From IMG/VR virus record IMGVR_UViG_3300043411_000942, positions 168,938-232,937 of that record: a stretch of 64,000 nucleotides of DNA. One strand, 5' to 3'. A program made the translations under genes and the position numbers. The notes under the pieces are model-generated. The model was not told the DNA's origin, did no database searches, and saw only the letters and a program-made list of their open reading frames with translations. Below are positions 13,496 through 56,524 of this stretch, piece after piece; the stretch's first letter is position 1, and the number at the start of each line of letters is the position of its first letter. The DNA is from a virus.

Positions 13496-14113
13496 ATGGC
13501 AGACGGATATCTTATCCTTGTAGACCCGACCGAGTTAGCTAATCGATTCTCCACTCAGCCAAAGGAATTTGAGGAGGAAGAAGAGCCCGAAGTAGGCACT
13601 AGTATGACTCTGAGCTATGAGAGTCAGATTCAGCCTCTACTAGACCGGATCCCTAAAAGGGAGGCGGATCTCATGGAGTTGTACTACATGCAAAAGAAAC
13701 GGCAGGCGGACCTTGCCGAGATCTTTGGGGTGACTCAAGCTGCAATCAGCTATAGGTTGAACCGAGGATTGCAGAGAATTAGGTTCCTGTTGTCGATCCC
13801 AACCCTTAGCGAAGATGGGTTACGTCAGGACCTCCCAGAGGTGCCCTTCAAGCCGACTGACGTCAACATCCTTGTGGGTATGTGGCAAACAACCTGCCAG
13901 TCTGAAGTAGCTTCCAAGTTAGGCCTAACTCAAGGTAGAGTTAGGCATCGTTTTTTTGGGGCTGTAGTAGTCCTAGAGAAGAGGGCTGCGGAGGACCCTA
14001 AGTTCGTCCCCTATTCCAAAGTCTTCAGTTCCATTGCGAATAAAAATTTCAACGTGCTCAGGGAGGTGCGTCTACCCCAATGGCAGGGGCGTGGTGGAGA
14101 TGGCTGTTTTTAA
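13496..14113 (+). CDS. Sigma-70 region-4-like transcription regulator
   Basis: This 205-aa protein has a short acidic N-terminal part, then a helix-turn-helix block (about 50-100: KREADLMELYYMQ, ADLAEIFGVTQAAISYRLNRGLQRI) resembling region 4 of sigma factors. A second HTH-like block follows (about 128-160: SEVASKLGLTQGRVRHRF). There is no region 2, so it cannot melt promoters alone and more likely acts as a late-gene activator or a small DNA-binding regulator. AGAGG lies 8 bases before the ATG. It begins after a 146-bp gap that is the natural place for its own promoter. Confidence 0.7.
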   Translation: MADGYLILVDPTELANRFSTQPKEFEEEEEPEVGTSMTLSYESQIQPLLDRIPKREADLMELYYMQKKRQADLAEIFGVTQAAISYRLNRGLQRIRFLLSIPTLSEDGLRQDLPEVPFKPTDVNILVGMWQTTCQSEVASKLGLTQGRVRHRFFGAVVVLEKRAAEDPKFVPYSKVFSSIANKNFNVLREVRLPQWQGRGGDGCF

Positions 14114-21452: not shown

Positions 21453-24400
21453 ATGGCTCAAGATAAGAAACAGGTTGGGATTGCCAACCTCATCCGTAGT
21501 GCTGGGCACAGATCAAAGTCAACAGATAAGAACAGCAAAGCGGGGCTTCTCACGACTACGAAGAGTGGTCGTGAGATTCGCATATTCGACATTCTGACCT
21601 ATATTGAAGCCCCTTGGGGCCTCAATATGACGTTGTACCCAGTACAACGGTTCATAGTCAAGCTCTACTACAACCTACCCCTAGATGAGGTCTTACCTGA
21701 GAACGTGAATCGTCAGATTCGGGTCTCAGACATGTTCAACAGTAAGATACTGTACACCTTCACGGAGAAGGAGTACCTCCATTACCTATACAACGAGGGT
21801 CGCTGCAACATCAAAGAGCAGGACCACATGCGGAGGCAACTTACACTTCCGATAGGTCGGCGCGCGGGCAAGTGCAAGTCTCCGAAATCTTTAGTGGTTA
21901 CGTCAAAAGGCCTTTTAGAGCTTTCTGAACTAGGGGATGTTAGTGGGCCTGAGTGGCAACCCCTTACCATCACTGTCGCACAAGCTGGAGGGCGTCAGGC
22001 ACAATCGTCTCACTTCTACAATAACGGGGTAAGTCAAACCCGTAAGATTAAATTACGCTGTGGCATTGAGGACGAAAGCACTCCCAACCATAGAGTAATG
22101 ATACTAAGTAAAGACGGTGTTGTTGATTGGAAGTGCATGGGGGATGTCCAAGTAGGGGACTATGTAGCGGTCAGTAGAGGTACGGATCTTTGGCCAACTG
22201 TCATGTTCCCCGTACCTAAGGCAAACTTGTGGTCTCTCCCAGATGTAGTTGATGAGGACTTTGGGTTATTTCTAGGGTACTTGGTTGGGGACGGAACCTG
22301 GGGGCAAGCTTCGTACTTAGAGCTTACAGGTTTGGAGGCTCAGGTTCGTAGATTCTCTCAGATTGCATCAAAAGTTTTAGGGCACCCTGGTCGTTGCTAC
22401 CCAGCAATAGGATCTGATAATGGTTGGCGTTGGAGGTTTGACGGGGTGGGCGTAGGGGTTAACGGGCCAGCTAGAGAAGTTAGAGGTGTCTTGCATGACC
22501 TTGGATTTAACCTCGACGTAGAACGAGACAAGAAACGAGTCCCTTTCTCCATTAGAAGGTCCCCTAAGTCTGTTGTTTGTGCGTTTCTTCGTGGGCTATT
22601 TGAGACTGATGGGTGTTCGGAAGACTCTGGTCGAATTATTACACTCTCCTCATCTAGCTTTGAACTTGCCCGTGAAGTCCAACTGCTGTTGTTGAACTTA
22701 GGGGTGATTACGCATATTGGGTCGAAGTGGAACGCTAAGTACAAAAAGCACTACGCCATCCTTTCAATAAGGGGGGCGGAGTCTCGGGCAATTTTCTGCG
22801 AGCAGATCGGGTTTGACTCTGACAGAAAACAAGGACCCCTCCTAGAGAAGGTAGCTCAGCAAAAGGTAAGAGCTGACAACAAGTCAGACACCGAAGCTAT
22901 CCCCAACCAATTTGATTGGTTACAATCCCTACTAGGCCTTATCCCTAAGCGGAATGCTTCTGCTGGCAAACCTGGGTGGGGGCGAAGCCTTCTACGCCAA
23001 GAGTTAGGTAATGCTATCAAACCAGGGTCCTCTGAGGACCTTAGTTACCCCAGATTACGTAAGGCTCTTGTTGTAGCGGGGAACTTAGGCGCTGAGGGTC
23101 CAGTTGTAGACCACTTCGAGGAGTTGCTGCGGCTCAATTACTTTTACGACCCAATTGTCTCGATAGAGGAGGGAGAAGCTCAGGTTTACGACTTGACCGT
23201 GCCAGACGGGGAGGCGTTTGTCGCCAATGGTATGGTCAACCATAACACAACTCTCTCAGCAATTTTCGCTAGTTACGAGTTGTACCGTCTCCTTTCTCTG
23301 CATGATCCGCAGGAGTACTACGGACTCCCGAACGGAAACCGCATACAAATCATTAGCGTTGCTACCGACAAGGACCAAGCAGGGCTGTTGTTCAATGACG
23401 TGACCGCGCACATGGCTAAGTGCGAGTTCTTCAAGCCGTACATTGCCAACAACACGCTATCCTACGTTCAGTTGAGAACCCCTAGTGACATAGAAAAATA
23501 CGGACCAACCAACAGGACGACAGACGGCAAGTTTACGTCCTTCAACGGCAAGGCTTCAATCCGCGTAACCTTCAAAGCTAGTATCTCAAAGGGCCTTCGT
23601 GGAGCTGGTAACGTAGTCATCATCCTAGACGAGATGGCTCACTTCCAGGCTAATGGATCTAGCTCTGCGAAGGACATCTACGACGCAATCACTCCCTCCG
23701 CAGCTGCCTTCTCTCAGAAGGACTTGAACACTGGGTTGCCGATCAATGGTTCAGAGACCGAATCTGAGGCTAGGATCATCGGTATCTCCTCCCCCTTGAA
23801 TAAGGCAGGTAAGTTCTACGAGCTGTTTCACCTTGGCATGAGTCGAGGTGAAGGTTCGGAGAACATGCTTGTCATTCAAGCTCCGACTTGGGAGGTGAAC
23901 CCTACCGTACCTACGAGCTACTATAGGGCAAAGTACCATGAGGACCCTACGGTTTTCATGACAGAGCATGGGGCTCTATTCTCTGACCGTGTACGAGGTT
24001 GGATCGAGCGTGAGCAGGATCTTACGTCCTGTATACGCTCAGACCTACGCCCAAGGTCTTACGGGCCGGTCCGCTACCCGCATCAGATGGGTCTTGACGT
24101 GGGTATGGTAGGGGACGGGACGACTGTAGCCATTACTCACTGCGAGGGTCAAAACGTCATTCTAGACTACCACGAGGCGTGGTACGCAGGAGTGTCGTGG
24201 AAGGAATCGAACCCTCACCTCACTGCCCCTCTAGTAGACTACGCCAAGATGCTAGAGACGGTAGAGCGGTTGGACTTTGATGAGATTGCTAATTGGATCG
24301 TCACGTTATCCAAGAAATTCTACCTGACGTCTGGGATCTTCGATAGGTGGAACGGGCTACCCTTAGAGCAAGCGCTGCACAAAAAGGGGCTCAAGCAATT

Positions 24401-24812
24401 CAAGAGTGAGTTCTTCACCCGAGACGACCGAAGTCGAATGTTTCAGGCCATGAAGCTCATGTTGTTCGATCATCGTATTGTCCTGTACGATTGGCCGATA
24501 ACAGCGGATGGGAAGGCTAAGCACAGCCCCCTGATTGAAGAGCTGTTGAGTCTGCAAGCCACTCAGATGGCTAAGAACCAGATCCTAGTGGAGGCCCCCA
24601 AGATCCTTGGGGCGCACGATGACGTTTCAGATGCGTTGGTACGTGCCGTGTGGCTCTCGTTAGAGCAAGTCTCCAACCAAAAGTCTACGGCTCGACCTGA
24701 GGGAAGTAGTAGCCTCGCTCGTGGGTCGTCATTACAAGGGTACCAAGTACGCAGGGCCCGTAACCATGGGGTGTTGCTAGATCGTAACGTGCGAGGGTTA
24801 CGTCGGCGATAA
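21453..24812 (+). CDS. Terminase large subunit interrupted by an intein
   Basis: The 1119-aa precursor contains an ATPase-nuclease terminase of about 661 aa plus a 458-aa intein (residues 141-598). The extein parts join as GRRAGK + TTLSAIF, restoring Walker A; Walker B is VVIILDEMAHF. The nuclease domain shows LDVGMVGDGT, an IFDRW segment and AHDDVSDAL, whose acids should bind metal. The enzyme pumps DNA into the prohead and cuts it. Because the intein splits the ATP-binding loop, the protein cannot work until splicing is complete. The start is the ATG three bases after the TerS-like stop. Confidence 0.93.
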   Translation: MAQDKKQVGIANLIRSAGHRSKSTDKNSKAGLLTTTKSGREIRIFDILTYIEAPWGLNMTLYPVQRFIVKLYYNLPLDEVLPENVNRQIRVSDMFNSKILYTFTEKEYLHYLYNEGRCNIKEQDHMRRQLTLPIGRRAGKCKSPKSLVVTSKGLLELSELGDVSGPEWQPLTITVAQAGGRQAQSSHFYNNGVSQTRKIKLRCGIEDESTPNHRVMILSKDGVVDWKCMGDVQVGDYVAVSRGTDLWPTVMFPVPKANLWSLPDVVDEDFGLFLGYLVGDGTWGQASYLELTGLEAQVRRFSQIASKVLGHPGRCYPAIGSDNGWRWRFDGVGVGVNGPAREVRGVLHDLGFNLDVERDKKRVPFSIRRSPKSVVCAFLRGLFETDGCSEDSGRIITLSSSSFELAREVQLLLLNLGVITHIGSKWNAKYKKHYAILSIRGAESRAIFCEQIGFDSDRKQGPLLEKVAQQKVRADNKSDTEAIPNQFDWLQSLLGLIPKRNASAGKPGWGRSLLRQELGNAIKPGSSEDLSYPRLRKALVVAGNLGAEGPVVDHFEELLRLNYFYDPIVSIEEGEAQVYDLTVPDGEAFVANGMVNHNTTLSAIFASYELYRLLSLHDPQEYYGLPNGNRIQIISVATDKDQAGLLFNDVTAHMAKCEFFKPYIANNTLSYVQLRTPSDIEKYGPTNRTTDGKFTSFNGKASIRVTFKASISKGLRGAGNVVIILDEMAHFQANGSSSAKDIYDAITPSAAAFSQKDLNTGLPINGSETESEARIIGISSPLNKAGKFYELFHLGMSRGEGSENMLVIQAPTWEVNPTVPTSYYRAKYHEDPTVFMTEHGALFSDRVRGWIEREQDLTSCIRSDLRPRSYGPVRYPHQMGLDVGMVGDGTTVAITHCEGQNVILDYHEAWYAGVSWKESNPHLTAPLVDYAKMLETVERLDFDEIANWIVTLSKKFYLTSGIFDRWNGLPLEQALHKKGLKQFKSEFFTRDDRSRMFQAMKLMLFDHRIVLYDWPITADGKAKHSPLIEELLSLQATQMAKNQILVEAPKILGAHDDVSDALVRAVWLSLEQVSNQKSTARPEGSSSLARGSSLQGYQVRRARNHGVLLDRNVRGLRRR
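21873..23246 (+). mobile_element. Intein with LAGLIDADG homing endonuclease in terL
   Basis: The insert starts with Cys141 directly after Walker A Lys140 and ends ...MVNHN before Thr599, the +1 residue. TPNHRV is splicing block B, and YDLTVPDGEAFVANG is block F. Two LAGLIDADG-type helices (FLGYLVGDGT near residue 275 and FLRGLFETDG near 382) mark the homing endonuclease. Length is 458 aa, usual for a full-size intein. Confidence 0.95.
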
Positions 24813-25875: not shown

Positions 25876-26394
25876 ATGGATTTGCCTCGCACACGAGACT
25901 GCATTGTTTTGGTTAAGGGGGATAGTTACCCGGTAGCCATTTCAGCTGCATTAGCCACTGGAGGGTGGCAGGGAGGTCAGGGAGTTCAATGGTCAACTCC
26001 TACCCGAGACAACTTCGTGGTAACCTACTCGGATGGTCTCTACGCAGGGTTCCTTCTTTGGGGTAGTGATGAGCTAGGGGACAAACACACGGGTATGTCG
26101 GGCAACCAACCCCACTACAGATTTGCAACTTGTGGTGCTGGAGGGTGGTTGATTACGACTCGTACCTACGAGAAGTACACTTACGCTTCTCGTATTGGAG
26201 GTGGTCCGCTTATTCCAATCGTGTATTCCGCAAGTGATCGACTAGTTTTCAGTCTGCGGGGATGGCTGACGAAGGAAGACGAGTGGACCCTTTCAGGTGA
26301 CCCTCGTGCCCCAAACACATACTACATAGCTTTCGTATCCCAACCCCCTACGGCAGCGACTGAGTATTACTTAGGGGTTCAGGTGAGCATATGA
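25876..26394 (+). CDS. Virion-like paralog family, copy 1
   Basis: This 172-aa protein is the first of three paralogs (also 26391-26921 and 27538-28056). Shared features: an RxRDC start, KGD, GGWxGGQGVQW, TYSDGLYxGFLLxGSDE, then YTYASRIGGGPLxP and a C-terminal strand with a Q-T/V-S end. It is beta-rich, with no Cys pairs or membrane segment. Family not recognised. Its location just before the portal suggests a small structural or decoration protein, and three copies suggest repeated or hetero-oligomeric assemblies. Confidence 0.7.
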   Translation: MDLPRTRDCIVLVKGDSYPVAISAALATGGWQGGQGVQWSTPTRDNFVVTYSDGLYAGFLLWGSDELGDKHTGMSGNQPHYRFATCGAGGWLITTRTYEKYTYASRIGGGPLIPIVYSASDRLVFSLRGWLTKEDEWTLSGDPRAPNTYYIAFVSQPPTAATEYYLGVQVSI

Positions 26395-26921
26395 TTGGCC
26401 CACTGTCCTTTCCACGGGATCGAGACTGCTACACTATATTCAAAGGTGATGCCTACCCAGTAGCTATCTCTCCTGCGATGCGGGCTGGAGGGTGGCAGGG
26501 AGGTCAAGGTGTTAAGTGGGTGGACTCCTCTAGGGATGAGTTCATGGTGACCTACTCAGATGGCCTCTACGGGGGGATTCTTCTCTGGGGGTCAGACGAG
26601 AGTTCAGACCGGTATGCCTCTCTCACTGGAACACAACCTCAATACGGGTTTGGTACCTTTTGTGCGGGTGGTTGGCTCCTTGCCACTAGAACCTTCGAGC
26701 GGTACACTTATGCGTCTCGCATAGGTGGAGGCCCTCTAGTTCCTCTGACCTACATAGTCGGTGAACGTCTTGTACTTTCTCTACGGGGCTGGTTGACCAA
26801 ACAGGACGAGTGGACTCTCACTGCGGACCCTAGAGGAGCAAACGGTTACTACCTAGCTTCAGTTGTCCAAGCACCGTCTGCGGATAACAACTACTACATT
26901 ACGGTTCAGACCTCTATATGA
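26391..26921 (+). CDS. Virion-like paralog family, copy 2
   Basis: The 176-aa second paralog overlaps the stop of copy 1 (ATGA). It keeps the GGWQGGQGV, TYSDGLYGG and YTYASRIGGGPLVPLTY motifs and is closer to copy 1 than to copy 3 in its C-terminal RGWLTKxDEWTL. Its stop overlaps the start of the inserted HNH gene (ATGA), so translation can pass straight from one to the other. Confidence 0.7.
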   Translation: MIGPLSFPRDRDCYTIFKGDAYPVAISPAMRAGGWQGGQGVKWVDSSRDEFMVTYSDGLYGGILLWGSDESSDRYASLTGTQPQYGFGTFCAGGWLLATRTFERYTYASRIGGGPLVPLTYIVGERLVLSLRGWLTKQDEWTLTADPRGANGYYLASVVQAPSADNNYYITVQTSI

Positions 26922-27538
26922 TCATGGAGACCCTCAACAAGACATGCAAACGATGCAGCAAAGAGAAGCCTCTTGACTTGTTCGTGAAACATCGAGTGTC
27001 ACGTCACGGTCGTGGGTCTTGGTGTCTGAGCTGCTTCAATACTTACATGAAGCATCGGATCCGAGAGCGTCAGGAAATCATCGATCAGCATAAGTCTAAG
27101 CCTTGTGTTGACTGTCAACTCACGTTTCATCCCGTGAGTATGGATTTCGACCACGTCAGAGGTTCGAAGCTCAAGGAGGTGAGCCGTTTGCTCACCTACA
27201 GTCTTGAGCGGTTCTTAGGCGAAATTGCGAAATGCGAGGTGGTCTGCGCTTGCTGTCATCGCATCCGTACAAGAGCTATAAGCGTGTCTGTCGACCCTAA
27301 GTATCTCGCCTTTCAAGCACGCTTGCTCCCAGTTAAAACCAAACCATGTCTCGATTGCGGGTCGGCATTCCCACCGGAGGCTATGGACTTTGACCATGTG
27401 CGGGACTTGAAGGTTCGGGACATCTCACAAATGTCTTTGGCCCCGTGGGTCAAAGTGGAGAGGGAGATCGCCAAGTGTGATCTGGTTTGTGCTAACTGCC
27501 ACCGTTTGCGCACTCAAGCTCGCAAGGAGGCTGCTTAA
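26918..27538 (+). CDS. Tandem HNH endonuclease, likely homing gene
   Basis: The 206-aa protein has an N-terminal Cys4 finger (CKRCSKEK...CLSCF) and two HNH-like units of about 70 residues: KPCVDCQLTF...MDFDHVRG...AKCEVVCACCHRIRT and KPCLDCGSAF...MDFDHVRD...AKCDLVCANCHRLRT. The second has the full Asn-x-x-His end, while the first has Cys in place of that Asn. This duplicated zinc HNH layout is common in phage homing endonucleases. It sits between paralog copies 2 and 3, sharing 4 and 1 bases with them. Confidence 0.85.
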   Translation: MIMETLNKTCKRCSKEKPLDLFVKHRVSRHGRGSWCLSCFNTYMKHRIRERQEIIDQHKSKPCVDCQLTFHPVSMDFDHVRGSKLKEVSRLLTYSLERFLGEIAKCEVVCACCHRIRTRAISVSVDPKYLAFQARLLPVKTKPCLDCGSAFPPEAMDFDHVRDLKVRDISQMSLAPWVKVEREIAKCDLVCANCHRLRTQARKEAA

Positions 27539-28056
27539 TGCCTGAAATCCTTCGATTCCGAGACTGCATAGTATTCTTCAAGGGGGATTCACAGACTGTC
27601 GCTGTTTCTCCTGCTATGGTTGCGGGAGGTTGGCCAGGAGGCCAAGGAGTTCAATGGGTAGCCTCAACCTCAGATGAGCGAGTAGTTACTTACTCCGAGG
27701 GCCTCTATGGGGGCTTTCTCATTCACGGTTCGGATGAAGTTGGCGATAGGTTTACAGCGATCACCAGGCAGCAGCCTGTGTACAAGTATGCTACAATGTT
27801 CTCAGGAGGCTGTCTAATTTCGACAAGTAGCTACGAGCGGTATACCTACGCGTCTCGCATAGGTGGGGGCCCTCTAGTTCCTCTGACTTACCAAGTGCAA
27901 GACATTCTCTACCTGTCGAAAAGAGGGTTGTGGACCAAAGAGGATGAGCTGACTATAACGGGTAGTCCTCTGGCCCCTGCATTCTTTACTGGGTTCGTGG
28001 CTCAGACCCCCAAAGCTAGCAACCAGCTCTTTTTGGGCATTCAGACATCAATGTAG
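27538..28056 (+). CDS. Virion-like paralog family, copy 3
   Basis: The 172-aa third paralog follows the HNH gene with a TAATG overlap. It has GGWPGGQGVQW, TYSEGLYGGF and YTYASRIGGGPLVPLTYQV. It diverges more at the C-terminus (RGLWTKEDELTI). The three copies must come from duplications, with the HNH gene arriving between the second and third afterwards or together with one duplication. Confidence 0.7.
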   Translation: MPEILRFRDCIVFFKGDSQTVAVSPAMVAGGWPGGQGVQWVASTSDERVVTYSEGLYGGFLIHGSDEVGDRFTAITRQQPVYKYATMFSGGCLISTSSYERYTYASRIGGGPLVPLTYQVQDILYLSKRGLWTKEDELTITGSPLAPAFFTGFVAQTPKASNQLFLGIQTSM

Positions 28057-42599: not shown

Positions 42600-44366
42600 A
42601 TGACTCGAAGTGCAAGCACTCACAAAGAAGCTGGGATCATCGTTTACCTTCAGGAGGAGTTGACCGACGCAAGAATGCGTTGCGACCAACTGAAGAAGTT
42701 CGTTGATCGGGCTGTACGTCACATATCCGACTCCCCTCAGAAAGATCACTTCTATGAGGTGGCAGGGGATCTCATCTACGGGATTCCGGATGCTCTGTTC
42801 CGGCTAGATAAGGCTCTTGACGCTACGGCTCTTGCTGCGGCTAGGCTGGACTATGAAGAGCTGAAGCAGAGCCTTAAGCCAGAGAAGGTAGAGCTACTGG
42901 AAGAAGTTCTTAAGGGCGTTAGGGTGAGACACCTTGACCGACGCGCCCCATCTGCCATTAAACCGAGTCCAGAAGGCCTAGCCTTCCCCCAGGAGAAAAC
43001 TGCTATGTTCAAGGCTGCGTCCAAAAATCGTGTTGCTGAGGCTCTTTACCGTATCGCTTCTGGAGTGGAGGCGGCAAGCCTATCTCCAGTGGACGCTACC
43101 ATGAGGCTACATCGAGTCCTCATGGCTCTAGCTCAGACTCCAAGTCGAGCTGTTCAAGCCATGGGTCCTATCCAGGCAGACTCTCGTGAGAAGGTCATGG
43201 AGGGGTTCAAGGGAGCCAACCCAGACCTCACGGATGAGCAGCTTGAGGAGATCGCTGACCAGTGGGAGGCGAACAAGGACGTCGTAAAGGATAAGCAAGC
43301 TGCTGGTGAAGAAGGCAAGGCCTTCAAAGAGTTGCTAATGGGGCATAAGGCGTTAGCTCGTGCGCGCTTCTTACTTGAAGACGCGGAATATAGCGAATCG
43401 CTAGACGATATGATGGTTGATCTCGATAAAGCCCAAATGTTGGTTGCTAAGTGTCTAGATCGACTCAAGAGTGGTAAGACAGCTCACTCTAACAAGTCAG
43501 CTGCTGGTCTCAGGTCAGCAGCAATATCTGAGCAGGGGCTAGTCTGGGACGCAGAAGACTTAGTTGCATCCTCGGATATTCAAATCCGTAAGTTGCAAAT
43601 CTTTACCCGTGAGTGCAAAGGGAGGGCAGATCTTGCTACCCCTTTGAAGTACGTTATGAAGTGGCTGGTGGATGCAGACGCCTCACTCAGAGGCATTGAA
43701 CATACACTCAAGAGTGGTAAGAAGACAGCCCGCTACGAAGAAGCTGGTCTCAGGTCAGCAGCAATATCTGAGCAGGGGCTAGTCTGGGACGCAGAAGACT
43801 TAGTTGCATCCTCGGATATTCAAATCCGTAAGTTGCAAATCTTTACCCGTGAGTGCAAAGGGAGGGCAGATCTTGCTACCCCTTTGAAGTACGTTATGAA
43901 GTGGCTGGTGGATGCAGACGCCTCACTCAGAGGCATTGAACATACACTCAAGAGTGGTAAGAAGACAGCCCGCTACGAAGAAGGTAAGTCCGCAGACCCC
44001 ACTCAGAACATGTCTGAGGAAGACGCTGCGGAGTGGAAGAAGCAGACTGAAGAGAACAAGGACAACTTCAAGTCCGCTGCTGGTAAGGCCTTCCGTTACC
44101 CGGAAGGTCAGATGACGGAAGAGGACTGGGTCGACAGATACGCTGAGTCGGTGGAGGAGTACCGTGCTAGATGGACCGACCTCTTTGATCGTCGGAAGTT
44201 CAACAGCCTGGAGGGGTTTGGGGCACAGCAAAAGTACGAAGACGACCTGAAGCTCAAGGCCCAGAAACCCCGCTTCAGAGCTTGGAAGAAGGGTAAGGAG
44301 ACGTACCAGGACATCTCCAAGGCGACGTTCGAGTGGGCGAAGAAGCGAGGCATCAAGTCCGAGTAA
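42600..44366 (+). CDS. Unknown helical protein with an exact internal duplication
   Basis: The 588-aa protein is mostly helical. Residues about 302-381 and 382-461 are identical 80-residue units (starting AGLRSAAISEQGLVWDAEDL, ending GKKTARYEE), encoded by an exact 240-bp tandem repeat. A related, diverged unit (LLMGHKALARARFLLEDAEY...MVAKCLDRLKSGKTA) precedes them. So the protein grows by repeat addition. The C-terminal 120 residues are charged (MTEEDWVDRYAESVEEYRARW). No family recognised; its place in the structural region suggests a virion protein. Confidence 0.7.
   Translation: MTRSASTHKEAGIIVYLQEELTDARMRCDQLKKFVDRAVRHISDSPQKDHFYEVAGDLIYGIPDALFRLDKALDATALAAARLDYEELKQSLKPEKVELLEEVLKGVRVRHLDRRAPSAIKPSPEGLAFPQEKTAMFKAASKNRVAEALYRIASGVEAASLSPVDATMRLHRVLMALAQTPSRAVQAMGPIQADSREKVMEGFKGANPDLTDEQLEEIADQWEANKDVVKDKQAAGEEGKAFKELLMGHKALARARFLLEDAEYSESLDDMMVDLDKAQMLVAKCLDRLKSGKTAHSNKSAAGLRSAAISEQGLVWDAEDLVASSDIQIRKLQIFTRECKGRADLATPLKYVMKWLVDADASLRGIEHTLKSGKKTARYEEAGLRSAAISEQGLVWDAEDLVASSDIQIRKLQIFTRECKGRADLATPLKYVMKWLVDADASLRGIEHTLKSGKKTARYEEGKSADPTQNMSEEDAAEWKKQTEENKDNFKSAAGKAFRYPEGQMTEEDWVDRYAESVEEYRARWTDLFDRRKFNSLEGFGAQQKYEDDLKLKAQKPRFRAWKKGKETYQDISKATFEWAKKRGIKSE
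43503..43982 (+). repeat. Exact 240-bp tandem direct repeat
   Basis: 43503-43742 and 43743-43982 are identical over 240 bases and in frame (80 codons each). Not even a synonymous difference is present, so the duplication is very recent or maintained. Confidence 0.97.
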
Positions 44367-50269: not shown

Positions 50270-51355
50270 GTGGTTGATCATGCTGTCGATGCGAGCCTTC
50301 TTGGGGATGCTTCGGTAACCTCTGAGGCAGTTGCCATTTACGCCCTAGCCTCCTCCCCTACAGGGGATGCTACTCTTGGGGTAGTAGACCCTACTATTCA
50401 ATGGGCACTTGGGTCATCTCTTGCAGGAGATGCTACTCTTGGAGTAGTAGACCCTACCGTACAGTGGGCGCTTAATGCCTCCTTAGATGGAAGTGCTGAC
50501 GTTCTGATCATTCAGAATTTCCATGCAGTAGATGCTACACTTAGCGGGGATGCCGCACTAACAGCTAGCCTTACTGCTCAATGGGCGTTGGGTACATTGT
50601 CCCTCGATGCCGGAGCCACCCTTGGTGTAGTGGACCCTACAATCCAATGGGCGGTCGCAGCGACCCTTCTTGCAGATGGCACACTAGGGGTTGTAGACCC
50701 TACCCTACAAGGCGCCTTGGCCGCTACTCTATCGGGAGACGCCACCGTAACCTCTGATCTTGCCGGACAGTATCCGCTTGTCGTAACGTTCGCTGGGTCT
50801 GGGGACTTTGTTGCGACAATCCTACAGAACCCACTATTCGCAAGCCTAGATGCGTCTGCGGACCTGACAGCAGTACCTACCATGGTACTCTCCCCTTCGG
50901 CAATCCTGATTGGAGATGCATCGGTCACCTCCGCCCTGAACGTTTTCGTGGGTCCGGTTACAGCTCTGCGCTACGGGGTCCCAAGTAGGCGAGCTGAGGC
51001 GTCCAAGGTAGTCTTCGATCAACTAGACTTGTTCCTTGCAGACGGTAAGACTAGGGCCCAAGATGTTCCTGTCTCAGCTCTCTACCTCAGAGTCTACGTC
51101 AATGGTACACAGGCTGACTGGCCCTTGGTGTCAGGGGCTGGAGTCACGGATGTGCAGATCGCTGCGGGTAAGGTCTACTGGACGGAGTTCTCTACCGGGT
51201 TCTACAGTGTTCGATTCTTCCCCAACCAGATCGGTATCTGGCGGGTAATCCTGACCTACCCAATCTACGACCAAGCTGTATCGCTAAGCTATGATGTGGT
51301 ACCTCAAGTTGGGTTCCCAGGTGGTCTAGGTCTAAGGTCTTCTTTCATAGGTTGA
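50270..51355 (+). CDS. Adhesin-like protein with 21-residue repeats
   Basis: The GTG at 50270 gives 361 aa. The N-terminal 230 residues contain about ten units of 21 residues, the best of them reading GDATLGVVDPT(I/V)QWALxxSL. The C-terminal 120 residues form a different beta domain (ALRYGVPSRRAEASKVVFDQLDLF, then FYSVRFFPNQIGIWRVILTYPI), which looks Ig-like. At the DNA level adjacent units are 63 bp apart and nearly identical, so slippage could change repeat number. It is related to the protein at 49123. Confidence 0.65.
   Translation: MVDHAVDASLLGDASVTSEAVAIYALASSPTGDATLGVVDPTIQWALGSSLAGDATLGVVDPTVQWALNASLDGSADVLIIQNFHAVDATLSGDAALTASLTAQWALGTLSLDAGATLGVVDPTIQWAVAATLLADGTLGVVDPTLQGALAATLSGDATVTSDLAGQYPLVVTFAGSGDFVATILQNPLFASLDASADLTAVPTMVLSPSAILIGDASVTSALNVFVGPVTALRYGVPSRRAEASKVVFDQLDLFLADGKTRAQDVPVSALYLRVYVNGTQADWPLVSGAGVTDVQIAAGKVYWTEFSTGFYSVRFFPNQIGIWRVILTYPIYDQAVSLSYDVVPQVGFPGGLGLRSSFIG
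50363..50488 (+). repeat. 63-bp repeat units in the adhesin-like gene
   Basis: Two adjacent 63-bp units start GGGGATGCTACTCTTGG (50363) and GGAGATGCTACTCTTGG (50426) and differ at few positions. More diverged units follow around 50612 and 50678. Confidence 0.8.
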
Positions 51356-51361
51356 GGGGAA

Positions 51362-51553
51362 ATGTCACATCAACTATTACAGGTCATTGATTGCGAGCAA
51401 ACAAGGGAAATTCGGTATGTGGATAACACCTTGATACCTAGCAGTCATATCAACAACTTCTTAAAGGTGATCAGCCCATCCGGTAAGGAGTACACTCTTC
51501 AGTGCTCAGAGGACCTCCTTGAGGAGTTGTTCCCAAGCCCAGTAGAGACTTGA
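51362..51553 (+). CDS. Unknown small protein
   Basis: A 63-aa protein behind a GAGGGGAA ribosome site: MSHQLLQVIDCEQTREIRYV, then SGKEYTLQCSEDLLEELF. It is strand-rich and acidic at the end. Its place between virion genes, six bases after one and 33 before the next, fits co-expression. Family not recognised. Confidence 0.6.
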   Translation: MSHQLLQVIDCEQTREIRYVDNTLIPSSHINNFLKVISPSGKEYTLQCSEDLLEELFPSPVET

Positions 51554-51586
51554 TGCTCACCCTAGCCAACAAGGAATGGTAACTCT

Positions 51587-52066
51587 ATGGCCTTCCCAGG
51601 AGTGTTCAAACGAGGCTATATCTTCCAAAGAGGAGATCTACCTCTCTTCATTACGGACTCTAGTGGGAATGCGACCAACCCTTACAAGGTGACGTTCACT
51701 CTCTACTACCGTGCAGGTAATAGTCCGTGTGAGCTTCAGGTTGGACCTATAGACCGAACCCCCGTTCAAGCTAAGATTGGGGAGTACTATGTCTCTGGGG
51801 TTGCTGGGGAGTGCGGTCAGCCGGGCCAGTGGTACGTAGAGTGGAAGTACCAGGAGTCTTTCGGGTCTCAGTGGGTGTCCGATAAGATGGGGTTCAGTGT
51901 GTTTGAGACGACCCAATTCGCACCAGTAACCTACACAAGTTACCCTTGCGGCTGTGGAAACTCTTCGGGATGTGGATGCACGATTGCCAACCCCCGTGGA
52001 GGGTGTCAGTGGGGCTGTCGAAACTCTTGTCTCCAAGTGTCCTCTTGCGGAAAGTATGGGTGGTGA
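51587..52066 (+). CDS. Virion protein with Ig-like domain and Cys-rich tail
   Basis: The 159-aa protein has an N-terminal beta domain (about 10-105: RGYIFQRGDLPLFITDSSGN, GEYYVSGVAGECGQPGQWYVEW) shared with the next gene product (RGQQLGREDLNLFLTNASGH, GEYYASIIIPLDANLGEYRIRW). The C-terminal 50 residues carry 9-10 Cys in CxC patterns (CGCGNSSGCGC, CQWGCRNSC). That tail could bind metal or form disulfides outside the cell. Probably a duplicated neck or tail structural protein. Confidence 0.6.
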   Translation: MAFPGVFKRGYIFQRGDLPLFITDSSGNATNPYKVTFTLYYRAGNSPCELQVGPIDRTPVQAKIGEYYVSGVAGECGQPGQWYVEWKYQESFGSQWVSDKMGFSVFETTQFAPVTYTSYPCGCGNSSGCGCTIANPRGGCQWGCRNSCLQVSSCGKYGW

Positions 52067-52069
52067 GTC

Positions 52070-52549
52070 ATGGGCGTAGGTCTTCTTAGGGGTCAGCAGT
52101 TGGGTAGGGAGGACTTGAACCTTTTCCTGACCAATGCTTCCGGACACCCCGTCAATGCAGCAGAGATAAGCTACGCTATCTACGACTTCACTACTGGACT
52201 AGAGGTCTTGGTTGGGAGCAATCAGCGAACCCCTCTAAATCCAACAGTAGGGGAGTACTACGCGAGTATCATTATCCCTTTGGATGCGAACTTGGGTGAG
52301 TACCGTATACGTTGGGCAATCCAAGAGCTAATTGGTGGCCCACTCCAGACCGTAGTTCAAGAGTTTAGCGTTCAAGACCGAGATATGGTCATGCCAACGT
52401 GCTTCACTCCTACTCAAACAGACCTGATTCGCAGATTGCGAATGGTTCTCAGAGACCAGTGTGTCGGAGGTGAGGAGCTTGTTGAGTTAGATGTGGATGG
52501 TGAACTTATGCTTGTTAGATTGGACGAGCTTTGGGGGGCTATTCAGTGA
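52070..52549 (+). CDS. Fractured structural gene, part 1: N-extein plus 29-aa N-intein
   Basis: Residues 1-130 are the N-extein: a beta domain like the previous gene product, then TPTQTDLIRRLRMVLRDQ. Cys131 starts a 29-residue N-intein (CVGGEELVELDVDGELMLVR, then LDELWGAIQ). It has the Cys and strand pattern of block A and then stops. The rest of the intein and the rest of the protein are encoded in a separate gene at 53423. The joined exteins read RMVLRDQ + SPDKFYKFRPPAHEETVNQF, a continuous helix-rich neck-type sequence. The product should be made only after trans-splicing. Confidence 0.88.
   Translation: MGVGLLRGQQLGREDLNLFLTNASGHPVNAAEISYAIYDFTTGLEVLVGSNQRTPLNPTVGEYYASIIIPLDANLGEYRIRWAIQELIGGPLQTVVQEFSVQDRDMVMPTCFTPTQTDLIRRLRMVLRDQCVGGEELVELDVDGELMLVRLDELWGAIQ
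52460..52546 (+). mobile_element. Split intein, N-terminal fragment (29 codons)
   Basis: Starts at Cys131 (52460-52462) and runs to Gln159, just before the TGA. At 29 aa it is far shorter than the about-100 aa usual for split-intein N-fragments and resembles atypically split inteins. Complementary to 53423-53818. Confidence 0.88.
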
Positions 52550-53433
52550 CGGTTCTCCTCCAATTATTGGCAAAGCATGGTATCAGTTTAGATGCCTTCG
52601 TAAAGAAAGGTCGTCCCCCACTGGGAGTTAGGGAGAAGAGGGCTTTAATTGTCACGGAGCTACACCTATCTGGGTACTCTTGGGCCGAGATGTGTCAAAT
52701 CACTGGATTAGGTAATGCTGCTATTCAGAACCTATCTAGAGCAAAGGGGTGCGCTGCGGTAGTTAGAAAACGCAAGGAACTAGGTAGGAATGTTGGGTTG
52801 TCTTGGGCTGGTAATACAAGACCAGGTCAGTTAGAGAAGCAGTGGGCTAGAGGGGATTTCGACCGGCTTAGGGGCCGTATTAGACCAAAAGAAGAGAGAG
52901 CAGCTTTAGTTCGTGGTTGGACTCCAGAGAAACGAGCAGCAGCGTCAGTACGAAGTTTGAAGTTATGGCAAAGTCCAAAAGTTAGGGGTCACCTATTAGG
53001 TTTTCACCGTGACCCACTTGAGCGTAGTAGACGATCGAAGTTGCAAGTTGTGCGCATGCTCCAAACTCCTACAACCTACCTAAGGGGTAAGTTTGATTGG
53101 GTACCTACCCCAAAAGGGATAAGCTCCAAAGCAAGAGTTCGGTCGTCCTATGAAGCTGCGGCAATATCTGTACTTGAGGCTGATGTAACGGTAGCTAAGT
53201 ACAGCTATGAGTTAGTCTTTATGGTTGAAGGTGGTAGGTGGATAATACCCGACTTCCTTGTAGAGTACTCAACTGGAATTACAACTCTAGTTGAGGTAAA
53301 AGCGTCTTGGGTTTTGAGTCTGCCGAGTGATCACAAGGTTAAGCAAAGACTTGAGTTATCCCGTCGACTAGCTGAGCAGAACAACTGGCACTTCGAGATT
53401 TGGACAGAAAAGGAGCTGCGTAATGCTCTCTGA
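52546..53433 (+). CDS. PD-(D/E)XK-type homing endonuclease between split-intein halves
   Basis: GTG 52546 overlaps the upstream stop (GTGA); a TTG at 52531 is also in frame. The about-295-aa protein has an HTH-like N-terminus (SGYSWAEMCQITGLGNAAIQNLSRAKG). A basic middle rich in Arg/Lys follows (TPEKRAAASVRSLKLW). The nuclease domain near the C-terminus reads SSYEAAAISVL, WIIPDFLVEY and TTLVEVKAS, which fit the Glu, Asp and E-x-K ligands of TnsA/T7-endonuclease-like PD-(D/E)XK enzymes. It lies exactly between the two intein-bearing genes. It would cut the unbroken homologous gene and so spread the whole cassette. Confidence 0.75.
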   Translation: MTVLLQLLAKHGISLDAFVKKGRPPLGVREKRALIVTELHLSGYSWAEMCQITGLGNAAIQNLSRAKGCAAVVRKRKELGRNVGLSWAGNTRPGQLEKQWARGDFDRLRGRIRPKEERAALVRGWTPEKRAAASVRSLKLWQSPKVRGHLLGFHRDPLERSRRSKLQVVRMLQTPTTYLRGKFDWVPTPKGISSKARVRSSYEAAAISVLEADVTVAKYSYELVFMVEGGRWIIPDFLVEYSTGITTLVEVKASWVLSLPSDHKVKQRLELSRRLAEQNNWHFEIWTEKELRNAL

Positions 53434-53818
53434 TATACAACGAAGTAGGGTAAGGGCGGCCTTTACTGTAGGAAAGCTCAAGGTCAGATCCGTATCCCCT
53501 AGCGGGAGTATGGAATGGAAACGGGTTGTTGATGTGCAACGAGCTGAAGTCCCATGGGAGACTATCTACGAAGTAAGCTCAGACTTAGGATCAATGGTTT
53601 TGACTAGTGGTCACCGAGTTTTCACTTCTCCTGTAACCAAGACGGAAACTTCGAAACTTTGCCATGGGGTAAGATTACTGTCCGTGGTAGGCAGTTTAGT
53701 TAGTTCCTCAACCGTGGTAAGTGTGCAACAGATTGCTAGCCGACAGTTCATGTACGACTTAACAGCTGAAGATTGGCATAACTTTGTGCTATTTAGGTCT
53801 AAGAGTGTCATTAGCAAC
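53423..53818 (+). mobile_element. Split intein, C-terminal fragment (132 codons)
   Basis: Runs from the start codon to Asn132 (53816-53818), directly before Ser133. It holds splicing blocks B, F and G, so the break in the intein lies after block A. There is no LAGLIDADG domain. Confidence 0.88.
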
Positions 53819-54319
53819 TCCCCTGACAAGTTTTACAAGTTCCGGCCTCCAGCTCATGAGGAAACGGTCAACCAATTCAGTCGGGTGTTTGGTTATATCT
53901 GGGAGGACGCAGAGTTGCTAGAGTATCTTGAGAGGTCTCTAGACATGATCATTGCGTCCCCTCCTAGGACCCCATTCAATGGCATTGACCAGATGACTCA
54001 GATCCGACCAGAGTGGAGGACGCTCCTCATCACGGGTGGGATGTTCTGGGCACTTCAAGCCCTGCAAATTAACTGGACGGCAGATGAGTTCTCGTACTCG
54101 ATCGGCGGGATCTCCCTAGACTTAGACAAGTCAAGTAAGTATGACACCCTGAAACAAGGTGCAAGCGACCAGTTCGATAAGCAACTTGAGAAGGCCAAAG
54201 CGACCGTCAAGTTCATCAAGGGGCTACAGCAGCCTAAGTACGGGATGGGCGTGCGCAGCGCCTTCGGCCCGTTCCAAAGTAGGGGCGCTATATCTCCGCG
54301 AAAATTCATGGGAATTTAG
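53423..54319 (+). CDS. Fractured structural gene, part 2: 132-aa C-intein plus C-extein
   Basis: The ATG at 53423 has AGGAG 7 bases upstream. Residues 1-132 are the C-intein: block B-like LTSGHRVFTS (His64), block F MYDLTAEDWHNFVL, and the end SVISN, with Ser131 in place of the usual penultimate His. Ser133 is the +1 residue. The C-extein (133-298) begins SPDKFYKFRPPAHEETVNQF and continues FGYIWEDAELLEYLERSLDM and a helical end. It completes the protein begun at 52070; trans-splicing would give about 296 aa. It probably belongs to a neck or tail-connector protein. Confidence 0.88.
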   Translation: MLSDIQRSRVRAAFTVGKLKVRSVSPSGSMEWKRVVDVQRAEVPWETIYEVSSDLGSMVLTSGHRVFTSPVTKTETSKLCHGVRLLSVVGSLVSSSTVVSVQQIASRQFMYDLTAEDWHNFVLFRSKSVISNSPDKFYKFRPPAHEETVNQFSRVFGYIWEDAELLEYLERSLDMIIASPPRTPFNGIDQMTQIRPEWRTLLITGGMFWALQALQINWTADEFSYSIGGISLDLDKSSKYDTLKQGASDQFDKQLEKAKATVKFIKGLQQPKYGMGVRSAFGPFQSRGAISPRKFMGI

Positions 54320-54373
54320 TTTTTCACCGTATCGAGGTTGACTTTTCCGTTGTGCCGATCCATACTTAGGTCA

Positions 54374-55762
54374 ATGCCAAATAAGGGTCGTTGTGCCTGT
54401 CCTGCGTGTGGGAAGAACCTAGCCCCAAAGAGTATTCACGCTCACACTCTTGAGTGCGTTGATTGGAAGACAAAGTACGGTGACCCGTACCCGTACTTCA
54501 AGTTCAATGGTACCCCACACCAATACTCTGACGTAGCTCAGGAGGGCATTGACTATGTTCGATGTCGAGTGTGTCTTGAGTATGGGTGGGACTTTCGGTT
54601 CAAGCGCATGATGGATCACCTTAAAGGGGTCCACGGTCTTAGTGAGGCTCAGTATCTGCTGAGGTTCCCTGCGGCTCTAGTAAGGTTGCAGTCTACCCTA
54701 AGTAAGAGGCAGGGAACGGTACAGGGTAGGTTTGGAGTTAGTAACGTTTTTCAAGCTGACGTAGTTAAAGCTAAGTCCAAAGCTTCTTTGCTTGAGCGTC
54801 ATGGGGTAACCAGTCCGATTCAAGCTAGTTCGGTACGAGCAAAGATCGATGCTACGAATCTTGCTCGTTACGGGGTGACTAACCCTTTTGCCTCCTCAGA
54901 GGTGAAACAACGCATTCGAGCCACCAACCTAGAGCGATTCGGCGTCGAGAACCCTAACCAAGCTCCTGAAATTATACAACAACGTATAGCTACTAACCAG
55001 GAGCGGTACGGTGCAGATCACTATCTTGAGACTCCCGAGTTCAAAGAGAAGTTCAAGGCAACTTCTTTGGAGAGGTACGGCACTGTGCATCCTATGCAGT
55101 CCCCAGAGGGTAGGTTACCTTGTGAGACTAGTATGCTTGCTAGTCTTGGTGTTACCTACCCATTTCGATCTGATGCTGTACAAAGTAAGGCCTACGCAAC
55201 ATCCGTTGCGAACCATGGGGGGCAGCACCATCTCTCAGACCCAGCAATCATTGAGGCACGGAAGCAGCACCTAATGGAGCTTTACGGAGTTGACAACATC
55301 TCTAAGGTACCAGCGGTTAAAGAGAGGATCATCGCCAAGATTAAGGAGCGGTTTCGAGACGGAGCTATCCCACGAATTACGACTCCAGAGAGGGTATTTA
55401 GAGACCTTGTACCTGAGCGTGTGGTGTATTCTGGGGACTTTGAGTACTGGGTAACGTGGGCAAATGGGAGACGTAAGAATCCTGACTTTGTGGTACTAAC
55501 CGAGGAGCAGTACGCAGCGTATAGGGCTGGGGTCCCTTTGGGAGACCTACGGACCTACCTTGTGGTTGAGGTCAATGGTGTTTGGTGGCATACTAAGCAC
55601 AAGAACATGACGCGCGAGGCTAGGGAGAAAGAGTTTGTAGACGGCTACGCTTCAGTTGGTGTGAGTTGTTTGGTTGTTTGGGAGGACGATCTAGAAACCA
55701 AACCAGAGTCTATTCAGCAGCAGGTCAGCGCGTTTCTTGTGCAACCGAAGGTTAGAGGTTAA
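54374..55762 (+). CDS. Zinc-finger Vsr-like homing endonuclease with YGV repeats
   Basis: From ATG 54374 the protein has 462 aa (open upstream to TTG 54338). The N-terminus has two C2H2-like fingers: CACPACGKN...HAHTLEC and CRVCLEYGWDF...HLKGVHGLSEAQYL, the latter like MucR/Ros. Residues about 115-315 hold about seven units of the form ERxGVxNPFQ...VKxxIxATN, probably DNA-reading. The C-terminal 120 residues read NPDFVVL...VVEVNGVWWH...CLVVWEDDLE, matching the Vsr/EDxHD nuclease fold. It lies 55 bases after the C-half of the fractured gene, next to the other homing gene. Confidence 0.75.
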   Translation: MPNKGRCACPACGKNLAPKSIHAHTLECVDWKTKYGDPYPYFKFNGTPHQYSDVAQEGIDYVRCRVCLEYGWDFRFKRMMDHLKGVHGLSEAQYLLRFPAALVRLQSTLSKRQGTVQGRFGVSNVFQADVVKAKSKASLLERHGVTSPIQASSVRAKIDATNLARYGVTNPFASSEVKQRIRATNLERFGVENPNQAPEIIQQRIATNQERYGADHYLETPEFKEKFKATSLERYGTVHPMQSPEGRLPCETSMLASLGVTYPFRSDAVQSKAYATSVANHGGQHHLSDPAIIEARKQHLMELYGVDNISKVPAVKERIIAKIKERFRDGAIPRITTPERVFRDLVPERVVYSGDFEYWVTWANGRRKNPDFVVLTEEQYAAYRAGVPLGDLRTYLVVEVNGVWWHTKHKNMTREAREKEFVDGYASVGVSCLVVWEDDLETKPESIQQQVSAFLVQPKVRG

Positions 55763-55763
55763 T

Positions 55764-56030
55764 ATGACTCTCAAATCCAGATCAAACAACGTCGACATTA
55801 CACCAGCGGAAGCCTTTGAGAAGCAGGTCTCTGGGATCGCCAACACTCTCGCAGAGATCGACTGCGGCGCGATCCACGGCGGCAACTGGCGCTTGCCGTG
55901 TCAAATCTGCATCGGTCGAGAGCGGGACCTTGGGAAGCAACTCCTGAGCGCAATCCAGGACGAGTCGGTTCGGAGGATGGTGCAGCGAGGACACGATGCA
56001 CGCGATGGGAACAAAAAGCGAGGCCCATGA
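55764..56030 (+). CDS. Unknown small protein
   Basis: ATG 55764 follows AGAGGTTA; the open frame extends back to 55737 within the previous gene. The 88-aa protein contains ITPAEAFEKQVSGIANTLAE and a Cys pair LPCQICIG, and ends in a basic tail. The LPCxIC pattern may bind metal. Family not recognised. Confidence 0.6.
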   Translation: MTLKSRSNNVDITPAEAFEKQVSGIANTLAEIDCGAIHGGNWRLPCQICIGRERDLGKQLLSAIQDESVRRMVQRGHDARDGNKKRGP

Positions 56031-56054
56031 CGCTGCTTGGTGTATACCCTGTCA

Positions 56055-56204
56055 ATGCAACTGACTTGGGCTACCTACTGGCACCTGAACGAGCTTCAAC
56101 GCGAGGAAGTCTCTTTCCATGTGAAGGGTAAGCATGTCCATGACCTTGGAGCTGGAAACGGTAACCTCATCTTCGGCAAATTTGCCGTAGGGCTAAGGTT
56201 GTGA
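56055..56204 (+). pseudogene. N-terminal remnant of a class I methyltransferase
   Basis: The 49-codon frame reads WATYWHLNELQREEVSFHVK and then HVHDLGAGNGNL, which is motif I of SAM-dependent methyltransferases. It then runs to a stop at 56202. The frame shift to the next fragment happens with no room for motifs II-IV. I read it as the 5' end of a gene that lost its centre. The remaining C-terminal part follows at 56201. Confidence 0.5.
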
Positions 56205-56524
56205 TATACTTGGGGAAGAACACAGATGGTTCCGCATGTGGCCAACCGGAGTTCTTTGACGACCAGCTCTATCGAGAGCTTCTTGCCTACCATAGCGATC
56301 GATTCAACACGCTTGTAGTCGTGGGTGGTGTAAGAGATCTCAAACGTACCCCGATGGGGGAGGAGCTAGCTGGGCTCAACCTTAACTCAGGTCCAGTAAT
56401 GTACTACGACCAAGTGGAGAGAGGAAGAGAAGTGCCTGTAACTCATCGGAGCAATTACGATTTTCTTCCTACGCTCCACGTAGATCAAGTCAAGTGGGAG
56501 GGCGAGTGTGAGGGGGAGCAATGA
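56201..56524 (+). CDS. C-terminal remnant of a class I methyltransferase
   Basis: The GTG start overlaps the upstream stop and the frame encodes 107 aa. In this frame the bases just before the GTG already read RRAKV, continuing VIYLGKNTDGSACG, DQLYRELLAYHSDRFNTLVVV and GEELAGLN, a C-terminal end known from phage and bacterial class I methyltransferases. The catalytic middle is absent. It may be translated as a small protein, but catalysis is very unlikely. Its stop overlaps the next gene by 4 bases. Confidence 0.6.
   Translation: MIYLGKNTDGSACGQPEFFDDQLYRELLAYHSDRFNTLVVVGGVRDLKRTPMGEELAGLNLNSGPVMYYDQVERGREVPVTHRSNYDFLPTLHVDQVKWEGECEGEQ

What the first reader, a model, noticed from the sequence alone, without database searches (positions are those of the whole stretch)
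52070..54319. Fractured structural gene with an atypically split intein and a nuclease gene between the halves
One protein is encoded in two genes. Part 1 ends in a 29-residue N-intein (Cys131 start). Part 2 begins with a 132-residue C-intein (blocks B, F, G) and continues the protein from Ser133. Between them lies a PD-(D/E)XK nuclease gene, overlapping part 1 by 4 bases and part 2 by 11 bases. The joined exteins give a continuous helix-rich sequence. Fractured genes with split inteins and homing endonucleases are known from metagenomic phages, but the N-fragment here is unusually short, the penultimate His is Ser, and the nuclease is of TnsA/T7-like PDF...EVK layout rather than Vsr-type. The virion of this phage would depend on trans-splicing.
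Basis: partly seen in the sequence, partly recalled or inferred. Interest (0 to 1): 0.92.

Follow-up and report, generated by a model that had tools for sequence, protein, structure and literature searches.

The report
Phage gene broken by mobile split intein
A virion-region gene of a giant phage is cut into two genes that each end in half of a self-splicing protein (a split intein), with a TnsA-like DNA-cutting enzyme gene between them; relatives show that this cassette jumps between phages, that the two protein halves must be stitched together after translation, and that in some relatives the same gene is broken at two places into three pieces.

Summary
Confirmed and extended. At 52070-54319 one protein is encoded in two genes. 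Part 1 ends in a 29-aa IntN (Cys1) and part 2 begins with a 132-aa IntC; a nuclease gene overlaps both. Dozens of uninterrupted homologues cross the junction with no residue gained or lost (nearest ~80% identical). One relative (L126) carries the same intein unsplit at the same site in one 450-aa ORF. Sixteen distinct phage genes are split here; 14 keep the nuclease, two have lost or decayed copies. All 17 intein-bearing genes have Cys/Ser at +1, against 0 of 68 empty genes (64 Asn). IntC matches solved inteins, and the unsplit relative's model matches VidaL, an atypically split intein, so the short N-fragment is typical of that class. The penultimate Ser is a conserved subtype that covaries with a Trp in block F. 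The nuclease fold matches TnsA. Homing-type mobility is supported by a co-conversion tract between near-identical phages, synonymous divergence of 0.04-0.12 in the cassette against 2.2 in the extein, and mutually rejected trees. Four relatives are also split at a second site (gene in three parts). Splicing and cleavage are untested; the extein's function (head-tail connector) is weakly supported.

The parts
52070..52459 (+). N-extein, residues 1-130 of the host protein (Ig-like/beta-rich region plus the start of the helical region), ends ...RLRMVLRDQ
   Evidence: Aligns end to end with uninterrupted homologues, e.g. L116 82%, L114 77%
52460..52546 (+). IntN: 29-residue N-terminal intein fragment, Cys1 (stop codon 52547-52549)
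   Evidence: Same fragment in 16 split genes, always Cys1; continuous with IntC in the unsplit homologue L126
52546..53433 (+). Nuclease gene, 295 aa, GTG start: N-terminal helix-turn-helix, helical middle, C-terminal PD-(D/E)XK domain (E203, P235-D236-F237, E250-V251-K252)
   Evidence: PF08722 TnsA-like N E 5e-8; PHROG 218 (head closure/gp4-like) 2e-9; AF2 pLDDT 84; Foldseek TnsA 1t0f E 5.8e-6; catalytic residues conserved in 14 relatives
53410..53415 (+). AAGGAG ribosome-binding site of part 2, inside the nuclease gene (codes ..TEKEL)
   Evidence: the sequence is kept in L135 although its nuclease gene is gone
53423..53818 (+). IntC: 132-residue C-terminal intein fragment (blocks B, F, G; ends SVISN)
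   Evidence: PF14890 E 0.002 for this copy, 1.3e-9 for L132; profile matches solved inteins 2jmz 1.2e-9 and 4e2u 1.8e-6
53819..54319 (+). C-extein, 166 residues beginning with Ser+1 (SPDKFYKFRPP...), with stop codon
   Evidence: Uninterrupted homologues continue from residue 130 straight into this stretch; +1 is Asn in the nearest empty genes
54338..55762 (+). DUF7487 putative free-standing homing endonuclease next to the broken gene (neighbour, not part of the cassette)
   Evidence: PF24308 2.8e-41, PHROG 3339 homing endonuclease 2e-31; occurs with and without the intein

Best explanation
This is a fractured gene. A class-1 intein, split near its N-terminus (29 + 132 residues), interrupts a phage head-tail-connector-like protein between residues 130 and 131 of the uninterrupted protein. 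The three genes are translationally coupled. IntN and IntC bind each other, and the intein (Cys1, block B TSGH, block F D/H, Asn132, Ser+1) joins Gln130 to Ser133 by protein trans-splicing, giving the 296-residue host protein that relatives make as one chain. The TnsA-like PD-(D/E)XK enzyme between the halves is a homing endonuclease: it is expected to cut intein-less alleles in a co-infecting phage, so that repair copies IntN-nuclease-IntC, with some flanking extein including the Cys/Ser+1 codon, into the cut allele. Shown by sequence comparison: the split, the site, the intein family, the nuclease fold, horizontal movement of the cassette, and the +1 dependence. Inferred: splicing, site-specific cleavage, and the role in the virion.
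For: (1) Uninterrupted homologues with zero bases between the two extein matches. (2) Unsplit form of the same intein at the same site, one 450-aa ORF, L126, PF14890 2e-7; Foldseek top 50 all inteins, including VidaL 6vgv E 2.3e-8 and NrdJ-1 E 1e-8. (3) IntC profile hits solved inteins to 1.2e-9. (4) +1 residue Cys/Ser in 17/17 intein-bearing genes, 0/68 empty ones. (5) Active-site residues conserved and block F/penultimate residue covarying. (6) L006 vs L047: 97% and 99% identical flanks, but from about 45 bp before the site to 355 bp after it only about 80%; outgroup L017 is equidistant (87-88%) to L047 throughout but only 80% to L006 in the tract, so L006 received it. (7) L129 vs L132: dS 2.19 in the N-extein, 0.04 IntN, 0.12 nuclease, 0.09 IntC; nuclease dN/dS 0.33. 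(8) Extein and cassette trees reject each other (delta lnL 238 and 154, AU p < 1e-30).
Against: No biochemistry. The mobility evidence comes from relatives; the window's own nearest empty relatives are about 70-77% identical in DNA, too distant for a co-conversion test. The window copy lacks the penultimate His. Some split copies persist without an intact nuclease (L118, L135), so the nuclease is not needed for splicing. L127 lacks both the block F His and the penultimate His and may be inactive.
Confidence: 0.87

Rival explanations
1. The two halves work as two separate polypeptides (a gene in pieces) and the intein residues are vestigial.
For: Phage genes in pieces created by a homing endonuclease without splicing are cited in PMC10448857.
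Against: Intein catalytic residues and the Cys/Ser+1 are kept in essentially all carriers and only in carriers; IntN and IntC evolve under purifying selection (dN/dS 0.08-0.31); an unsplit, in-frame intein exists at the same site.
Confidence: 0.05
2. The window's intein is a splicing-defective relic (penultimate Ser instead of His).
For: Penultimate His normally assists Asn cyclisation; it is Ser here.
Against: Ten of 16 split relatives have Ser there, always with WHNF in block F, while His-penultimate members have NHNL: a covarying subtype, not random decay. No stops or frameshifts; the gene would otherwise lack an intact copy in a record whose search found one copy only.
Confidence: 0.06
3. 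The TnsA-like nuclease is not a homing enzyme for this site but a passenger, for example a gp4-like head-completion protein or an exclusion nuclease that happens to sit inside the split intein.
For: Its nuclease domain is also related to T4 gp4-type head-completion proteins (PHROG 218; phage ME3).
Against: All 16 full-length relatives found by scan 4 lie between IntN and IntC at this one site; it moves together with the intein; it has an N-terminal HTH that gp4-type proteins lack; a free-standing phage protein (L058) joins the same nuclease domain to a GENNPNWRGG motif typical of phage homing enzymes.
Confidence: 0.12
4. Assembly error or programmed frameshift, or a self-splicing RNA intron.
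For: None found.
Against: Same layout in 16 distinct genes from independent assemblies; three separate ORFs with their own start signals; no intron or other RNA family above its gathering score in 51000-56500.
Confidence: 0.01

Closest known systems
Fractured genes with split inteins and a homing endonuclease between the halves (Dassa et al. 2009, cited in PMC10448857, PMC12350094; paper itself not held)
   Same: Host gene in two genes, each carrying half an intein, with a nuclease gene between them, in phages.
   Different: The nuclease there is the EDxHD/Vsr-like family; here it is TnsA-like PD-(D/E)XK with an N-terminal HTH. A host gene of head-tail-connector type, and a second fractured site in the same gene of relatives, were not found in the papers read.
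Atypically split inteins: VidaL, AceL-TerL, PolB16 OarG (PMC10189870, PMC11923092)
   Same: Split near the N-terminus: short IntN, long IntC; class-1 motifs; VidaL 6vgv is the second-best fold match.
   Different: Penultimate Ser subtype; IntN 29-35 aa; an unsplit orthologue at the same site exists.
AceL NrdHF and MIJ3 PolB fractured genes (PMC7891396, PMC6892783)
   Same: Split intein with a putative homing endonuclease gene between the halves in phage-like DNA.
   Different: Those carry GIY-YIG and HNH enzymes and are split at the usual site or have a long IntN.
TnsA endonuclease of Tn7 (PDB 1t0f, 1f1z)
   Same: Fold of the C-terminal nuclease domain, E / PD / EVK motif order.
   Different: No TnsB/TnsC genes, different N-terminal domain, sits inside a split intein.
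MjaKlbA intein (PDB 2jmz, 2jnq)
   Same: Best sequence match of IntC to a solved structure.
   Different: Unsplit archaeal intein without this nuclease.

Membership tests
Split inteins (class 1, trans-splicing) | Two genes, one ending in IntN with a nucleophile at position 1, one starting with IntC ending in Asn followed by Cys/Ser/Thr | tested here: met
   Cys1, Asn132, Ser+1; 16 of 16 relatives
Split inteins (class 1, trans-splicing) | Hint fold / homology to proven inteins | tested here: met
Split inteins (class 1, trans-splicing) | Exteins join into a protein that exists uninterrupted elsewhere | tested here: met
   68 distinct empty genes
Split inteins (class 1, trans-splicing) | Demonstrated splice product | not testable with these tools
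   Needs co-expression or virion mass spectrometry
Atypically split inteins | IntN far shorter than IntC, split before block B | tested here: met
   29 vs 132 residues; block B lies in IntC
Fractured genes (Dassa type) | Homing-endonuclease-like gene between the split halves | tested here: met
   TnsA-like PD-(D/E)XK gene overlapping both halves
Fractured genes (Dassa type) | EDxHD/Vsr-type nuclease as in the original family | tested here: not met
   Site-1 nuclease gives TnsA and gp4-type matches only; a Vsr/DUF559-like nuclease is found at site 2 of relatives
Homing endonucleases | Mobile together with its element, with flank co-conversion | tested here: met
   In relatives; not testable for the window copy itself
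Homing endonucleases | Cuts the intein-less allele at or near the insertion site | not testable with these tools
   Needs purified enzyme
Tn7-type transposition (TnsA) | Works with TnsB/TnsC at transposon ends | tested here: not met
   No transposase gene in the cassette; the insertion is exactly IntN-nuclease-IntC

The most novel reading that the evidence does not exclude
A previously undescribed family of homing endonucleases with a TnsA-like fold mobilises an atypically split intein as a unit among huge phages. In the same gene, a second, Ser1-type split intein with a Vsr-like nuclease occupies another site, so some phages assemble one head-tail protein from three polypeptides by two trans-splicing reactions. 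Unsplit inteins in this family can be secondary: they re-form from split ones by deletion of the nuclease gene.
Probability: 0.65. Interest if true: 0.78.

Novelty: new variant of a known kind. Interest (0 to 1): 0.68.

Why it matters
Fractured genes are known from scattered cases, and whether the nuclease between the halves really moves a split intein, and how split and unsplit inteins turn into each other, has had few natural series to test. This gene family supplies one: empty, unsplit, split with nuclease, split with decayed nuclease and split without nuclease, at one residue of one protein, plus a donor-recipient pair of near-identical phages with a co-conversion tract. It also offers a set of new short-IntN split inteins (29-35 aa, two sites in one protein) of the kind used for protein semi-synthesis.

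Tried and rejected
Rfam scan of 51000-56500: no intron or other RNA above gathering score. PDB sequence search with the nuclease profile: nothing credible; the fold search was needed. Genome-contig scan with the nuclease profile: none; with the extein: three MAG contigs, not followed. First attempts to align IntC fragments to the unsplit protein together with empty genes failed (MAFFT mis-placed them), so the structure job used L126 with C-parts only; its N-extein is therefore modelled poorly. A link between the downstream DUF7487 enzyme and the intein was considered and dropped: it occurs beside 12 of 52 doubly empty genes and is missing beside several split ones. The original fractured-genes paper is not held.

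Full report
What is in the window. The window is the last 64 kb of a 232,937-bp virus record. At 52070-54319 three overlapping genes lie on the + strand. Part 1 (52070-52549) ends, after ...RLRMVLRDQ, in CVGGEELVELDVDGELMLVRLDELWGAIQ. The middle gene starts with GTG at 52546 and ends at 53433. Part 2 starts with ATG at 53423, behind an AAGGAG at 53410-53415, and runs to 54319; its first 132 residues carry TSGH, MYDLTAEDWHNF and SVISN, and the host protein resumes at SPDKFYKFRPP.

Is it an intein? The C-fragment alone matches Pfam Intein_splicing weakly (E 0.002), but the orthologous fragment of L132 reaches 1.3e-9 (above the curated cut-off) and the unsplit L126 protein 2e-7. A profile of C-parts matches solved inteins (2jmz 1.2e-9, 4e2u 1.8e-6, 7cfv 5e-5). 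A model of L126 (AlphaFold2, intein residues 131-284 mostly pLDDT 70-90, exteins poor) gives 50 of 50 top PDB fold matches that are inteins or intein-like domains, with NrdJ-1 and the atypically split VidaL first and second.

Do the exteins join? Scans of IMG/VR returned about 145 usable loci. A tblastn classification found 68 distinct genes in which the two extein matches follow each other with no residue between; the nearest to the window are L116 (82% / 80%) and L114 (77% / 80%). Tunturiibacter phage Tunturi_5 gp319 and Bacillus phage G gp165 are distant uninterrupted relatives.

The series at this site. Distinct genes at site 1: 16 split and 1 unsplit (L126). Of the split ones 14 keep a full-length or nearly full-length nuclease gene; L118 has a deleted nuclease fused to IntC, and L135 keeps only about 100 nt, including the piece that serves as ribosome-binding site of part 2. 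The +1 residue is Cys or Ser in all 17 intein-bearing genes and in none of 68 empty ones (64 Asn, 2 Asp, 1 Lys, 1 Ala). If labels were exchangeable the chance would be 3e-18; relatedness makes the true figure larger, but the trees below show several separate arrivals. This is the residue the splicing reaction needs, so it is the best sequence evidence that splicing really happens.

Active site. IntN begins with Cys in 16 of 16; block B is TxGH-like in all. Ten members have WHNF in block F and Ser before the final Asn (the window among them); five have NHNL and His there, as does unsplit L126; L127 has WYRF and Lys. The penultimate Ser is therefore a subtype that covaries with block F, not decay of this copy. 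L127 may be inactive.

The nuclease. Fourteen relatives align over their length with invariant E203, P235-D236, E250 and K252. Pfam gives TnsA-like N (5e-8), PHROGs a T4-gp4-like head-closure family (2e-9). The AlphaFold2 model (pLDDT 84) has an N-terminal helix-turn-helix, a helical middle and a PD-(D/E)XK domain; only TnsA structures match significantly (1t0f 5.8e-6, 1f1z 3.8e-5). Every full-length relative found sits between IntN and IntC at this site. A 272-aa free-standing phage protein (L058, L059) joins the same nuclease domain to a GENNPNWRGG motif, typical of phage homing enzymes (own knowledge).

Mobility. (a) L006 (site 1 split) and L047 (site 1 empty) are 97.3% identical over 5.0 kb upstream and 99.0% over 5.0 kb downstream, but from about 45 bp before the junction to 355 bp after it they are only about 80% identical. 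Against outgroup L017, L047 stays at 87-88% throughout, whereas L006 drops to 80% in the tract: L006 received the element with flanking extein. (b) L129 and L132 differ by dS 2.19 in the N-extein but 0.04, 0.12 and 0.09 in IntN, nuclease and IntC: the cassette moved recently as a unit between diverged alleles. (c) Trees of extein and of cassette for 14 loci reject each other's topology (delta lnL 238 and 154). The window's own cassette is closest in nuclease identity to L129/L132 (50-51%), which belong to the other extein clade. The nuclease is under purifying selection (dN/dS 0.33).

A second broken site. Ninety-two residues further on, relatives carry a different intein (Ser1, Ser/Thr+1, EF|S...HN|SYSIGG). 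It is split around a Vsr/DUF559-like nuclease (Pfam DUF559 2e-5 to 4e-8, PHROG homing endonuclease 1e-10) or unsplit (L006, L129, L052, L183). L016 and L192 have both sites split with both nucleases, and L135 and L118 both sites split with a nuclease lost or decayed: one protein from three genes by two trans-splicing reactions. The window has only site 1. In L129 the unsplit site-2 intein reads ...aaagaggag|cgtATGATGGAT..., that is, the ribosome-binding site and double start codon of the IntC gene of L168/L135 translated in frame (EERMMDN); the junction lies at a GGAG shared by both sides. There the unsplit form came from the split one by deletion of the nuclease gene.

Host protein. Upstream in the window are TerL, portal, protease and major capsid genes, and PHROG 17327 (head-tail connector) matches the C-extein at 0.002-0.005. 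Head-tail connector or adaptor is the likely role, with modest support.

What is known. Split inteins with nuclease genes between the halves, and atypically split inteins with IntN of 15-25 aa, are published (PMC7891396, PMC6892783, PMC10189870, PMC11923092; Dassa et al. 2009 through citing papers). In the papers searched I found no TnsA-like nuclease in this role, and no natural gene broken by two split inteins. Absence from an open-access library is weak evidence of novelty.

Limits. All mechanism beyond sequence is inferred. IMG/VR scans are seeded by short peptides and miss distant members. dS of 2.2 is saturated and means only 'large'. The mobility evidence concerns relatives, not the window copy.

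Noticed in passing
L016 4634-8282; L192 3484-7263; L135 5516-8453; L118 6001-8563: Same host gene split at two sites, hence three protein-coding parts; two different nuclease classes (TnsA-like at site 1, Vsr/DUF559-like at site 2) in L016 and L192.
   Followed up: yes
L129 8080-8175 vs L168 6733-6800 and 7700-7775: Unsplit site-2 intein that still contains the ribosome-binding site and double ATG of the split form: re-fusion by deletion at a GGAG microhomology.
   Followed up: yes
window 54338-55762: DUF7487 putative homing endonuclease directly downstream of the broken gene; found beside both intein-bearing and empty relatives.
   Followed up: partly
window 21453-24812: Large terminase gene with a contiguous intein containing a LAGLIDADG domain (PF14890 8.6e-13, PF14528 3.8e-15).
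   Followed up: partly
window 54074-54100 region (ADEFSYSIGG); also L115, L193: Residue at the empty site 2 is Ser where most empty genes have Asp, the residue that carriers have; possible footprint of a lost site-2 intein or chance.
   Followed up: partly
window 11478-13349: NusG/KOW-like domain fused to a 5'-3' exonuclease; the protein ends in FEKFGTSNP, resembling a DUF7487 repeat, perhaps a homing-endonuclease remnant.
   Followed up: no
window 42600-44366: 588-aa protein with a near-exact internal duplication (..AAGLRSAAISEQGLVWDAEDLVASSDIQ..).
   Followed up: no
window 26391-28056: Small putative nuclease gene (26918-27538, CxxC and HNH-like motifs) lies between two paralogous genes.
   Followed up: no
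window 13496-14113: Small protein with a sigma-70 region 4 domain (PF04545 4e-12), possible phage sigma factor.
   Followed up: no
L127 7298-7699: IntC lacking both the block F His and the penultimate His (WYRF, LKN|S), possibly a non-splicing relic.
   Followed up: no
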